This document shows, piece after piece, positions 37,351 through 42,869 of a stretch of 64,000 nt of DNA. Positions within the stretch are counted from its first letter, which is position 1. Every line of letters begins with the position of its first letter. Source of the stretch: a bacterium (GTDB lineage: Bacteria; Patescibacteriota; Gracilibacteria; UBA4473); the NCBI GenBank assembly GCA_018648585.1, contig JABGQW010000016.1:22483-86482 (forward strand), read 5' to 3'. A model generated the notes under the pieces. That model worked only from the letters and a program-made list of their open reading frames with translations. It was not told the origin of the DNA and made no database searches. The position numbers and the translations under genes are program-made.

Positions 37351-37378
37351 GCTCCCAGTTTCGGCTGGGAGTTTTTTT
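37351..37378 (+). terminator. Terminator downstream of tRNA-Cys
   Basis: ctcccagtttcggctgggagtttttttt. Confidence 0.85.
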
Positions 37379-38982
37379 TAATTTTTCACATTCCACGTCT
37401 GCCCGTCCGCTCCGTCGCGAACTTCAACGTGAAATTTTTCCAAAAGTTCGTCGCGGATCCGATCGGATTCTGCCCAATTTTTTTCCGCGCGTGCGTTTTT
37501 CCGTTCTGCCAAAATCGACTCGATTTCGTTTTTTTCAAATTCGTGGATTTCCACTTTCTGCGGAACGCAGTCAAAAATCGGATCAAAATCGTTCTGCAAA
37601 AAATTGAGTGCAGCGCTCGCGGTCGCGCCGTCGAGTTTTTTTTCTGCGTTCAATTTCAGCACGGCGTTCGTGATTTCAAAAACAGTCGCGAGCGCTCCGG
37701 AAACATTCAAATCGTCGGCGAGCGCGGTTTGAAATTTTTCTCGAAAACTTTCTGCAAAATTATTTGGCGGCTCGTGTTCGGTTTCGAGACAGGCGCGATT
37801 TGCCTCGACGATTCGTGCGATCGATGCGCGAGATTGTTCGAGCGATTTCATCGAAAAATCCAGCGTCGATCGGTAGTGCGCCCCGAGGAGCGCGAGCCGG
37901 ATTTCGTTTCCCTGCCAGTTTTTTTCCAAAAGATCGCGGATCGTGAAAAAATTTCCCGCGGATTTTGACATTTTTTTCCCCTCGACCTGCAAATGTTTTG
38001 TGTGCAGCCAAAAATTCACCGAGTTTTTTCCGTCGAAACTGCACTCATTTTGTGCGATTTCGCACTCGTGGTGGGGAAAAACGTTGTCTTCGCCGCCGGT
38101 GTGAATGTCGAACGGGAACCCGAGTAATTTTTTGCTCATCGCCGAACACTCCACGTGCCAGCCGGGAAATCCGCGATTTTTCTCCAAAAGTTCTCCAATT
38201 TCGTCGTCGCTCGTCGCGGGATTCGCTTGTCGTATTTCAGAATACGATTCACTAAAATCTCGCTTGAGTTCCTCGAATTTGGCGCTTTTTGAAGAAAAAT
38301 TTTTCGTGGCGTATTTTTGAATAATTTCGGCGGAAACCGGTTTCCCCGATAAAAATTCCCACTGCATCAAATGATTTTCGTCGGCTTTTTTCCACAGCGC
38401 AAAATCGAGCGGATCTTCTTTTTCAGAATTTACTTCGACGCGCGCGCCGGCGATCAGATTTTCCAGCGAATTGCCGGACAGTTGCCCGTATTTTTCAAAT
38501 TTCCGGGTGCGAAAATACACCGAGCCATTTTTTTCGTACGCAAAATTTTCGGCGATCAATTTTTTCACCAGCTCAATTTGTTCCGCGATAAATTCTGTTG
38601 CCCGCGGATATTCGTTCGCCGGGCGGATTCGGAGCGTTTTTTCATCTTCAAAAAAATATTTCTCAAATTTCCGCGCAATTTCAAACGGATCGATTTTTTG
38701 CTCGCGTGCGGTTTTCGAAATTTTGTCCTCGCCGCCAGCGTCCGCCGTTTCGTCGTTTGTCAAATGTCCGACGTCGGTGATGTTCATCACTTTTTTCACC
38801 TCAAATCCGGCGTACTCGAGCACGCGTGTCAGCAGATCGGACGCGAGAAAACTGCGAAAATTTCCGATGTGCGCAAAATTGTACACGGTCGGGCCGCACG
38901 AATAAATTTTCACCTTTTCTGGCTCGATCGGCACGAATTTTTCTTTTTTTCCCGACAGCGTGTTCGTCAAAAAAATTTCCAT
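37378..38982 (-). CDS. cysS: Cysteinyl-tRNA synthetase
   Basis: YSCGPTVYNFAHIGNFRSFLASDLL; GWHVECSAM; KKMSKSAGNF. Confidence 0.96.
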   Translation of the reverse strand: MEIFLTNTLSGKKEKFVPIEPEKVKIYSCGPTVYNFAHIGNFRSFLASDLLTRVLEYAGFEVKKVMNITDVGHLTNDETADAGGEDKISKTAREQKIDPFEIARKFEKYFFEDEKTLRIRPANEYPRATEFIAEQIELVKKLIAENFAYEKNGSVYFRTRKFEKYGQLSGNSLENLIAGARVEVNSEKEDPLDFALWKKADENHLMQWEFLSGKPVSAEIIQKYATKNFSSKSAKFEELKRDFSESYSEIRQANPATSDDEIGELLEKNRGFPGWHVECSAMSKKLLGFPFDIHTGGEDNVFPHHECEIAQNECSFDGKNSVNFWLHTKHLQVEGKKMSKSAGNFFTIRDLLEKNWQGNEIRLALLGAHYRSTLDFSMKSLEQSRASIARIVEANRACLETEHEPPNNFAESFREKFQTALADDLNVSGALATVFEITNAVLKLNAEKKLDGATASAALNFLQNDFDPIFDCVPQKVEIHEFEKNEIESILAERKNARAEKNWAESDRIRDELLEKFHVEVRDGADGQTWNVKN

Positions 38983-39089
38983 CGCCGCCATCTTCTTCGA
39001 AATTTTGCATAAAAAAAACATTTCCGCTTGCGTTTTTTTTTTTTGATGTAGAATAAACAGAAAAGTTCGTAAAATTTAACCAAATAAAA

Positions 39090-40535: not shown

Positions 40536-42869
40536 GTGGCAGACGATAAAAAAACGGAATCAGCATTCGCCTTTTCCGCGAAAAAAATCCCGACGGATGC
40601 GGGCTGCTACCTTTTTTTTGACGTGGCGGGGACGATTTTGTACGTCGGAAAAGCAAAAAATTTGCGGAACCGCGTGCGTTCGTATTTTCAAAAAACCGAA
40701 AAATCGCCGAAAACCGAGTCGCTCGTGAAAAAAATTTCTCGAATCGAAACGCGTGTGGTGGAATCGGAGACCGAGGCGCTGATTCTCGAAAATAATCTGA
40801 TCAAAAAATGGCAGCCGCGGTACAATATTTTGCTGCGCGACGACAAAAATTTTTTGTACCTGCGGATCACGAACGAACTTTTTCCGCGGCTTGAAATTAC
40901 GCGCCGAATTGTTCGGGACGGAAGTTTTTATCTCGGACCAAAAACGAGTGCGAAAAAGTTTCGTGCCACGATCGCGTTTTGTCAGAAAATTTTCCAAATT
41001 CGGACGTGCCGACTCGAATTTTCAAAATGCGGAACTGTCGCAAAAAACCCGGAAAAGCGCAGCCTGCCGTGTCTCGATTTTCACATCAAAAAATGTTCTG
41101 GGCCGTGCGCGGCCAAAATTTCCACAGAAAATTATCGAGCGGATGTCGAGCGAATGAAGAAATTTCTCCGCGGCGACACGCGCGAAGTTCTCGTTTCGTT
41201 GCGGGAAAAAATGATGAAACTTGCTGCCGAAAAAAATTTCGAAACGGCGGCTCGCACGCGCGACTTGATTCAGTCGATCGAAAGTTCGACGCAGTCGCAG
41301 TCGGTGCAGTTTTCCGATCTGGTGGCACGCGATTTTGTCCATTTTTTTCGCGATGGAAAATCGGCATTTTTCGTCCGGCTGGTGTTTCGCAACGGAAAAT
41401 TTTTGGATCAAAATGAAGTTGAATTTCACGCTGAAAAATTCGAGTCGGACTCGGAGTTGATTGAGAAATTTCTCCTGCAATTTTACGAGCGGGTCGATGA
41501 AATGCCGTCGGAAATTTTTCTTCCGGAGCGGCCAGAAAACGCGGAAGAATTGGCTGAAATTTTACACGTAAAATTACAGATTCCGGAGCGCGGGGAAAAG
41601 AAAAAAGTTTTGCAACTCGCTCGCAAAAACGCTGAAAAGTTTTTCAAAACGCGGGAATTGGAAATCGAAAGTCGTGCGGAAAATTTTGCGAACGCGCTTC
41701 CTGAACTTGCTGAAATTTTGAAACTCCCCGCGTTGCCGCGGCGGATCGAGGGGTACGATATTTCACATTTTGCGGGAAAAGAAACCGTTGCGAGTCAGAT
41801 CGTTTTTGTCGACGGAGAACCGAAAAAATCAGAATATCGGCGCTTCAAAATTCGGTCGCTGGCGCCCGGAGAAATTGATGATTTCAAATCGATGAACGAA
41901 GTGCTGGCGCGACGATTTTCGGTTTTTGCGAAAAACTTGCAAAATAAAAAATTGGACAATTTCGCGGATTTTTTACAGAAAAATAAAAAACTTTTGCAGC
42001 AGTTTCTCCAGTTTCAAAAAATAATGTCCGGGGTTGATTTTTGGTTGTTGGGGGGATTGGCGGCGGCATTTTCTGTCGGGCGATTTTGGCGGCAGCACGA
42101 AGATTTCGACGTTTTGGTGGAGAAAAAAAATTGGAAAAAAACACAGAAACTTTTGATTGCTGCGGGATTTGAAAAAACAGAAAACACCGAAAATTTTTTC
42201 ACATTTTCCAAAAAAGGATTTCCTCCGATCGACGTTTCTCCGCTCGGCGTGACGCTTCCGATCGGGAAATTTTCCAAAAAAAATACCGATTCGGGTCTCA
42301 AAAAAATTGGAGAAACTTCGGCGCGGGTGTTGAATTTTCAAACGCTGCTCGAAATAAAACGCACGCTCGCGGCGTCTCGCGAAAACGAGAAAGATGGGCG
42401 TGATTTGAAAATTATGACGGAATTTCAAACCGGAGAAAAACTTCCGGACTTGATCGTGATCGACGGTGGAAAAGGGCAGCTTTCTGCGGTTTTGAAAGTT
42501 TTTGCAAATATTTCGCATCCAGGATTCGATCCAAAAAAACAGATCGTGGCGCTCGCAAAACAGGAGGAAGAAGTTTTCGTTCCGGGGCAATCGGATCCGA
42601 TCGATTTGCCCGCGGATTCTGCGGCGTCCAAACTTTTGCAACGGTGTCGGGACGAGGCGCACCGGTTTGCGATTTCGTTCAATCGGTCGTTGCGAGAAAA
42701 AACGGCGATTCGTTCGGCGCTCGACGAAATTTCTGGAATCGGTCCCACGACGAAAAAAAAGTTACTGAAAACCTTTGGTTCGGTGTCCGGAATTCGTGCG
42801 GCAGAAGATGAACAGCTGCGCACGATTATTTCTGCGAAGTCGTTGCAAAACCTGCGAAAAAATCTTTAA
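40536..42869 (+). CDS. uvrC: Excinuclease ABC subunit C carrying an inserted nucleotidyltransferase domain
   Basis: GIY-YIG N-term (GCYLFFDVAGTILYVGKAKNLRNRVRSYF), UVR, UvrC RNase H-like (GYDISHFAGKETVASQIVF...LPDLIVIDGGKGQLSAV), HhH C-term; insert at about 41930-42435. Confidence 0.95.
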   Translation: MADDKKTESAFAFSAKKIPTDAGCYLFFDVAGTILYVGKAKNLRNRVRSYFQKTEKSPKTESLVKKISRIETRVVESETEALILENNLIKKWQPRYNILLRDDKNFLYLRITNELFPRLEITRRIVRDGSFYLGPKTSAKKFRATIAFCQKIFQIRTCRLEFSKCGTVAKNPEKRSLPCLDFHIKKCSGPCAAKISTENYRADVERMKKFLRGDTREVLVSLREKMMKLAAEKNFETAARTRDLIQSIESSTQSQSVQFSDLVARDFVHFFRDGKSAFFVRLVFRNGKFLDQNEVEFHAEKFESDSELIEKFLLQFYERVDEMPSEIFLPERPENAEELAEILHVKLQIPERGEKKKVLQLARKNAEKFFKTRELEIESRAENFANALPELAEILKLPALPRRIEGYDISHFAGKETVASQIVFVDGEPKKSEYRRFKIRSLAPGEIDDFKSMNEVLARRFSVFAKNLQNKKLDNFADFLQKNKKLLQQFLQFQKIMSGVDFWLLGGLAAAFSVGRFWRQHEDFDVLVEKKNWKKTQKLLIAAGFEKTENTENFFTFSKKGFPPIDVSPLGVTLPIGKFSKKNTDSGLKKIGETSARVLNFQTLLEIKRTLAASRENEKDGRDLKIMTEFQTGEKLPDLIVIDGGKGQLSAVLKVFANISHPGFDPKKQIVALAKQEEEVFVPGQSDPIDLPADSAASKLLQRCRDEAHRFAISFNRSLREKTAIRSALDEISGIGPTTKKKLLKTFGSVSGIRAAEDEQLRTIISAKSLQNLRKNL

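What the first reader, a model, noticed from the sequence alone, without database searches (positions are those of the whole stretch)
41930..42435. Nucleotidyltransferase domain inserted within UvrC
Seen: the uvrC ORF is continuous, but between DFKSMNEVLARRF and LPDLIVIDGGKGQ it carries about 165 extra residues where UvrC normally has a short linker. The insert contains LLGGLAAAFSVGRFWRQHEDFDVLV (GG...G...R.HxDxD), a later FPPIDVSPL and a KDGRDLKIM element. Knowledge: this acidic-triad arrangement is typical of the polymerase-beta-like NTase superfamily (ANT(2'')/LinA/MNT-like). Inference: an apparently intact NTase is embedded in the RNase H-like half of a DNA repair nuclease, perhaps to modify or regulate it (NMP transfer) or as a captured defence/toxin-antitoxin domain. 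I know of no described UvrC of this kind.
Basis: partly seen in the sequence, partly recalled or inferred. Interest (0 to 1): 0.92.

Follow-up and report, generated by a model that had tools for sequence, protein, structure and literature searches.

The report
DNA-repair nuclease with embedded nucleotidyltransferase
In this tiny Gracilibacteria-group bacterium the DNA-repair nuclease UvrC carries a whole, apparently catalytically intact antibiotic-modification-type nucleotidyltransferase inside one of its domains, and the same spot in relatives' UvrC holds other enzymes (mostly acetyltransferases), so one loop of a housekeeping protein has repeatedly accepted complete enzymes.

Summary
uvrC (window 40536-42869, 777 aa) is one open frame. 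Residues 463-634 (41922-42437) are extra relative to UvrC. They interrupt the RNase H-like domain between its first long helix and the strand that carries catalytic Asp643. The insert is a real nucleotidyltransferase (NTase): Pfam PF10706 above cut-off, AlphaFold pLDDT 92.5, best PDB matches LnuA and ANT(2'')-Ia. All three catalytic acids are present (UvrC D523, D525, D566). UvrC's own catalytic residues are intact, it is the only uvrC found, and uvrB is present.

It is not an assembly chimera: G009 ('Candidatus Gracilibacteria' isolate M50B91, another genus) has a homologous insert at the same site. The site is an insertion hotspot within the class. Of 109 UvrCs examined, 89 carry a 105-233 aa insert: 85 acetyltransferase-like (GNAT), 2 NTase, 1 DUF559 endonuclease, 1 serine hydrolase. 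About 35 GNATs have lost the acetyl-CoA motif, yet the domain stays. Related NTases are embedded in leucyl-tRNA synthetase in two other Patescibacteria.

Best reading: an autonomous NTase captured in frame in a permissive UvrC loop, both enzymes working. Substrate and any coupling to repair are unknown.

The parts
40536..42869 (+). uvrC, 777 aa, GTG start, one open frame
   Evidence: TIGR00194 567 bits, cut-off 285
40602..40826 (+). GIY-YIG nuclease domain (res 23-97)
   Evidence: PF01541
41184..41285 (+). UVR motif, UvrB-binding (res 217-250)
   Evidence: PF02151
41712..41921 (+). RNase H-like nuclease domain, first part (res 393-462); catalytic D408 at 41757-41759
41922..42437 (+). embedded nucleotidyltransferase domain (UvrC res 463-634)
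42102..42110 (+). NTase DxD motif (D523, D525)
   Evidence: sequence; invariant in 16 aligned NTases
42231..42233 (+). NTase third acid D566 (IDVSPL)
42438..42662 (+). RNase H-like nuclease domain, second part; catalytic D643 (42462-42464) and H709 (42660-42662)
   Evidence: both invariant in 20 UvrCs
42717..42857 (+). helix-hairpin-helix domain (res 728-774)
   Evidence: PF14520

Best explanation
uvrC here encodes a working dual-incision excinuclease whose RNase H-like domain has a permissive loop, between helix alpha1 and strand beta4, just before the strand that ends in catalytic Asp643. A complete ANT(2'')/Lnu-type nucleotidyltransferase gene was captured in frame in that loop in the window's lineage. 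It folds as its own domain, keeps its GG..G..R..DxD..D active site, and most likely acts as an autonomous NMP-transferring enzyme on an unknown small molecule or macromolecule, made in a fixed 1:1 ratio with UvrC and carried to wherever UvrC goes. UvrC keeps incising DNA. The NTase is not needed for incision: the sister species in the same genus, and about nine other members of the family, have a 12-36 residue loop instead. Shown: insert, fold, catalytic residues, empty sites, hotspot. Inferred: both enzymes active, independence from incision, order of events.
For: Continuous ORF and split UvrC match. Pfam NTase. AF2 pLDDT 92.5, pTM 0.86 for the insert alone. Foldseek LnuA 4fo1 TM 0.66/0.71 and ANT(2'')-Ia. 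Profile against LnuA E 1.2e-24 over 164 positions. Catalytic acids kept in both UvrC-borne copies. UvrC catalytic D408, D643, H709 invariant. UvrC parts fold and match 2nrt, 8b0q, 1yd6. uvrB present and only one uvrC found in the genome. Empty sites in G001 (same genus) and others. Different domain kinds at the same site in relatives. Related NTases embedded in LeuRS of G361 and G419. No intron or intein signature.
Against: Only two UvrC-borne copies are known, too diverged for a dN/dS test. In the full-length model the insert was poorly predicted (blocks at pLDDT 28-68), so the domain arrangement is unknown. At the same site about 35 of 81 GNAT domains have lost the acetyl-CoA motif, so domains can persist there without catalysis. 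No expression or activity data.
Confidence: 0.55

Rival explanations
1. The NTase acts on or regulates the repair machinery: it nucleotidylates UvrC, UvrB or the excised product, or senses NTP levels and gates the 5' incision.
For: The insert ends just before the strand with catalytic D643; both UvrC-borne NTases keep the active site; the fixed 1:1 tether is suggestive.
Against: Close relatives manage without it, or with unrelated domains (GNAT, DUF559, hydrolase), at the same site, and those have no common chemistry that would fit UvrC regulation.
Confidence: 0.2
2. The insert is a trapped passenger: once inside a needed gene it cannot be lost by frameshift or nonsense, so it persists as a folded spacer whether or not it catalyses anything.
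For: At this very site GNAT domains repeatedly lose the acetyl-CoA motif (35 of 81 lack it; about 16 changes on a quick tree) while the domain and frame persist.
Against: All three acids and the GG/G/R motif are kept in both NTase copies at 41% identity.
Confidence: 0.19
3. A captured toxin-antitoxin or defence NTase (MNT/HEPN-, AbiEii- or MenT-like).
For: MenT1 appears among the structural matches (E 1.7e-5).
Against: Best matches are antibiotic NTases; no PADLOC match; no partner domain found by Pfam in the neighbouring ORFs scanned.
Confidence: 0.05
4. Assembly or binning chimera.
For: The genome is an assembly in 32 contigs.
Against: An independent genome of another genus has a homologous insert at the same site; GC and codon use of the insert lie near the range of neighbouring genes; the contig is 111 kb.
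Confidence: 0.01

Closest known systems
UvrC (UvrABC excinuclease subunit C; T. maritima 2nrt, D. radiodurans 8b0q)
   Same: GIY-YIG, UVR motif, RNase H-like domain with D..D..H, HhH; single copy with uvrB in the genome
   Different: 172-residue NTase inserted in the RNase H-like domain, between its first long helix and the strand with the second catalytic Asp; the RNase H-like superfamily survey PMC3985635 calls insertions between alpha1 and beta4 relatively rare
Lincosamide NTase LnuA/LnuD and ANT(2'')-Ia (PF10706)
   Same: Fold, GG..G..R.H.DxD, third Asp, C-terminal KD..D helix element
   Different: 12-19% identity in the structural alignments; below the NCBIfam Lnu cut-offs (25 vs 300 bits); embedded in another enzyme
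GNAT-bearing UvrCs of the same class (found here)
   Same: Same insertion site
   Different: Unrelated inserted domain; often without the acetyl-CoA motif
Lineage-specific domain insertions in RNA polymerase (BEAN/HABAS, PMC11515920)
   Same: Repeated independent insertions in a housekeeping enzyme
   Different: Those are described as insertional domains of RNA polymerase; here the inserts are complete, well-known enzyme domains

Membership tests
UvrC | GIY-YIG domain | tested here: met
   PF01541, 44 bits vs 22.6; Foldseek 1yd6
UvrC | RNase H-like domain with Asp/Asp/His triad | tested here: met
   PF08459 159 bits; D408, D643, H709 invariant in 20 UvrCs. That these are the catalytic residues is from knowledge of the T. 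maritima structure
UvrC | UVR motif and HhH | tested here: met
UvrC | Incision activity with UvrB | not testable with these tools
   uvrB is present in the genome; uvrA not searched
ANT(2'')/Lnu NTases (PF10706) | Curated Pfam score | tested here: met
   28.6 vs 21 bits; G009 copy 31.1
ANT(2'')/Lnu NTases (PF10706) | Fold and three metal-binding/catalytic acids | tested here: met
ANT(2'')/Lnu NTases (PF10706) | Antibiotic nucleotidylation | not testable with these tools
   NCBIfam Lnu models far below cut-off, so not called a resistance enzyme
MNT-HEPN / AbiE / MenAT toxin-antitoxin | Partner gene or domain beside it | tested here: not met
   no partner domain found in the neighbouring ORFs scanned
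Intein or intron | Hint domain or catalytic RNA | tested here: not met
   no Hint model at E<=1; no Rfam match

The most novel reading that the evidence does not exclude
Patescibacteria nest whole enzyme genes in frame inside housekeeping genes (UvrC, LeuRS, IleRS, ValRS, Elp3) as a recurrent mode of genome evolution. The UvrC alpha1-beta4 loop is a hotspot, and the embedded NTase is an active enzyme working where UvrC works.
Probability: 0.35. Interest if true: 0.85.

Novelty: new variant of a known kind. Interest (0 to 1): 0.66.

Why it matters
A conserved repair nuclease tolerates complete foreign enzymes in the middle of a catalytic domain, at one loop, several times over. This gives a natural series (empty, GNAT, dead GNAT, NTase, DUF559, hydrolase) for asking how proteins accept nested domains, whether trapped enzymes are kept for their chemistry or because they cannot easily be lost, and whether nucleotide-excision repair in Patescibacteria has extra enzymatic steps. 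It also warns annotators that accessory enzymes in these small genomes can hide inside housekeeping ORFs.

Tried and rejected
Single origin vs two captures of the NTase: unresolved. G001 (empty site) groups with the window (86/99), G009's position is open, and holding the two NTase UvrCs together is not rejected (AU p 0.38). Target-site duplication: a 9-bp direct repeat (GAAAAACTT) lies at both junctions, but shuffles give up to 10 bp, so it is chance. Recent transfer judged by composition: GC3 45% vs 49 +/- 5%, not unusual. Finding the NTase donor: the genome contigs pattern scan found only G009; phylum hits are 15-23% identical standalone, fused or embedded NTases. My first GNAT-motif pattern was wrong and was replaced. 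Same-site domain insertion outside the class: loops of at most 35 aa in ten UvrCs fetched, though a few long UvrC ORFs were not dissected. dN/dS was not attempted: the two copies are too diverged and the same-genus genome lacks the insert.

Full report
OBSERVATION. The uvrC ORF spans 40536-42869 on the + strand (777 aa) without a stop. Against solved UvrC structures the protein aligns as residues 386-462 and 635-768 with nothing between. The insert is therefore residues 463-634 (41922-42437; translation). Pfam finds the usual UvrC domains plus Aminoglyc_resit (PF10706) inside the RNase H-like domain, above its curated cut-off when scanned alone or in the whole protein. NCBIfam scores the protein as UvrC at 567 bits, and sees weak Lnu similarity far below those families' cut-offs.

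FOLD AND ACTIVE SITE. With a 16-sequence alignment of related NTases, AlphaFold2 gives the insert mean pLDDT 92.5 and pTM 0.86. Foldseek's best solved structures are LnuA (E 2.7e-8, TM 0.66/0.71), then ANT(2'')-Ia entries, then MenT1 and TM1012. A profile of the alignment matches LnuA over 164 positions at E 1.2e-24. The DxD is invariant in the alignment; the third acid is conserved in most rows. In UvrC numbering the acids are D523, D525 and D566. All of G44, G45, G53, R57, D61, D63 and D104 of the insert are kept in the G009 copy. UvrC's D408, D643 and H709 are invariant in 20 UvrCs, and the UvrC part of the full model matches 2nrt, 8b0q and 1yd6. In that full-length model, where only two sequences cover the insert, the insert is poorly predicted; domain orientation is therefore unknown.

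POSITION. In the full-length model the insert follows the start of helix 449-482 (which runs on into it) and precedes strand 639-643, whose last residue is catalytic Asp643. In RNase H-fold terms this is the alpha1-beta4 connection, where a superfamily survey calls insertions relatively rare (PMC3985635). By the topology of the fold this loop should lie at the end of beta4 away from the active site (inference), which would explain tolerance.

NOT AN ARTEFACT. G009, a different genus of the same family, has a homologous insert (41% identity over the aligned insert) at the same place. The public record is 'Candidatus Gracilibacteria bacterium isolate M50B91', contig JAGYLK010000012.1. G009's UvrC is split between two contigs (C12, L007, and C150) whose parts overlap by about 16 residues in query coordinates. 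The window genome has one uvrC and a uvrB. There is no intron by Rfam and no intein model at E<=1.

THE SITE IS A HOTSPOT. I extracted 110 UvrCs from the class and compared the loop in 109; one is cut off before it. Twenty have a short loop of 8-36 aa, including those sampled from the TGA-recoded families f14 and f22 and the window's same-genus relative G001. Eighty-nine carry 105-233 aa: 2 NTase, 1 DUF559 (G002), 1 serine hydrolase (G026; PF06821) and 85 GNAT-type. Pfam finds GNAT in about 30 of 50 of these scanned singly; the rest are recognised only by similarity to them (HMM built here), and a few (f15, f17) are too degenerate to be sure. Of 81 GNATs of the main type, 46 keep an acetyl-CoA-binding-like motif and 35 do not, with about 16 changes on a quick tree: the domain often persists after losing its catalytic loop. 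In the window's family a second GNAT type (L012-L014, L017) scores weakly against the main type, and its similarity begins at an internal Met, as if a whole gene was captured (inference). In a 384-genome sample of the phylum, the class members listed show a UvrC match split at this site, while most others do not; ten UvrCs fetched from outside the class have at most 35 aa in the loop.

ORIGIN. The NTase insert is found within UvrC in 2 of 359 genomes of the class. The careful tree of the family does not settle whether it was gained once and lost in G001 and G002, or gained twice (AU p 0.38 for one clade). Composition of the insert is ordinary for the genome.

WIDER PATTERN. NTases of the same Pfam family are embedded in leucyl-tRNA synthetase in two other Patescibacteria (G419, 1006 aa; G361, 1795 aa). 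The latter LeuRS also carries HAD, Ham1-like and NUDIX domains. DUF559 endonucleases are embedded in long ORFs in seven of 25 family hits: UvrC of G001 and G002, ValRS of G002, IleRS of G009 (with a histidine phosphatase as well), Elp3 of the window's own genome and of G001, and an AroA-like ORF with a NUDIX-like end in G012 (Elp3 in G001 and AroA/NUDIX in G012 by my reading of the sequence, not by Pfam). I found no paper in the open library on UvrC with an NTase or acetyltransferase domain or on this nesting in Patescibacteria. That library lacks most subscription journals.

MECHANISM. The best-supported account is an autonomous NTase captured in frame in a permissive loop, with both enzymes working. 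The shown steps are the insert, the fold, the acids, the empty sites and the hotspot. Activity of either enzyme, the substrate and any coupling are inferred or unknown. The main rivals are coupling to repair and a trapped passenger. The GNAT decay at the same site makes the passenger reading serious; the kept NTase acids in both copies speak against it here.

Noticed in passing
L131 (G419) and L113/L167 (G361): Leucyl-tRNA synthetases of two other Patescibacteria carry an embedded PF10706-type NTase; the G361 enzyme (1795 aa) also has HAD, Ham1-like and NUDIX domains.
   Followed up: partly
L162:1541-3766 (window's own genome, G000:C4): Elp3-like radical SAM/GNAT protein with an in-frame DUF559 endonuclease domain; G001 has the same (L163).
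   Followed up: partly
L165:2-3541 (G009:C42): Isoleucyl-tRNA synthetase with both a DUF559 and a histidine phosphatase domain inserted in frame.
   Followed up: partly
L018:1027-1470 (G001) and L022:1009-1533 (G002): DUF559 units inserted in UvrC at two different sites, flanked by repeat-encoded Pro/Gly-rich peptides; L022 has 34-nt inverted repeats at its ends (85%), as of a mobile element.
   Followed up: partly
L124 (G402): An NTase of this family fused behind an alpha/beta (RBBP9-like) hydrolase, two of the domain kinds also found in UvrC loops; hydrolase part identified by eye only.
   Followed up: no
window 37378-39021: The cysteinyl-tRNA synthetase ORF (547 aa) looks longer than usual, with extra residues before the GFPGWHVECSAMS motif; read by eye only.
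   Followed up: no
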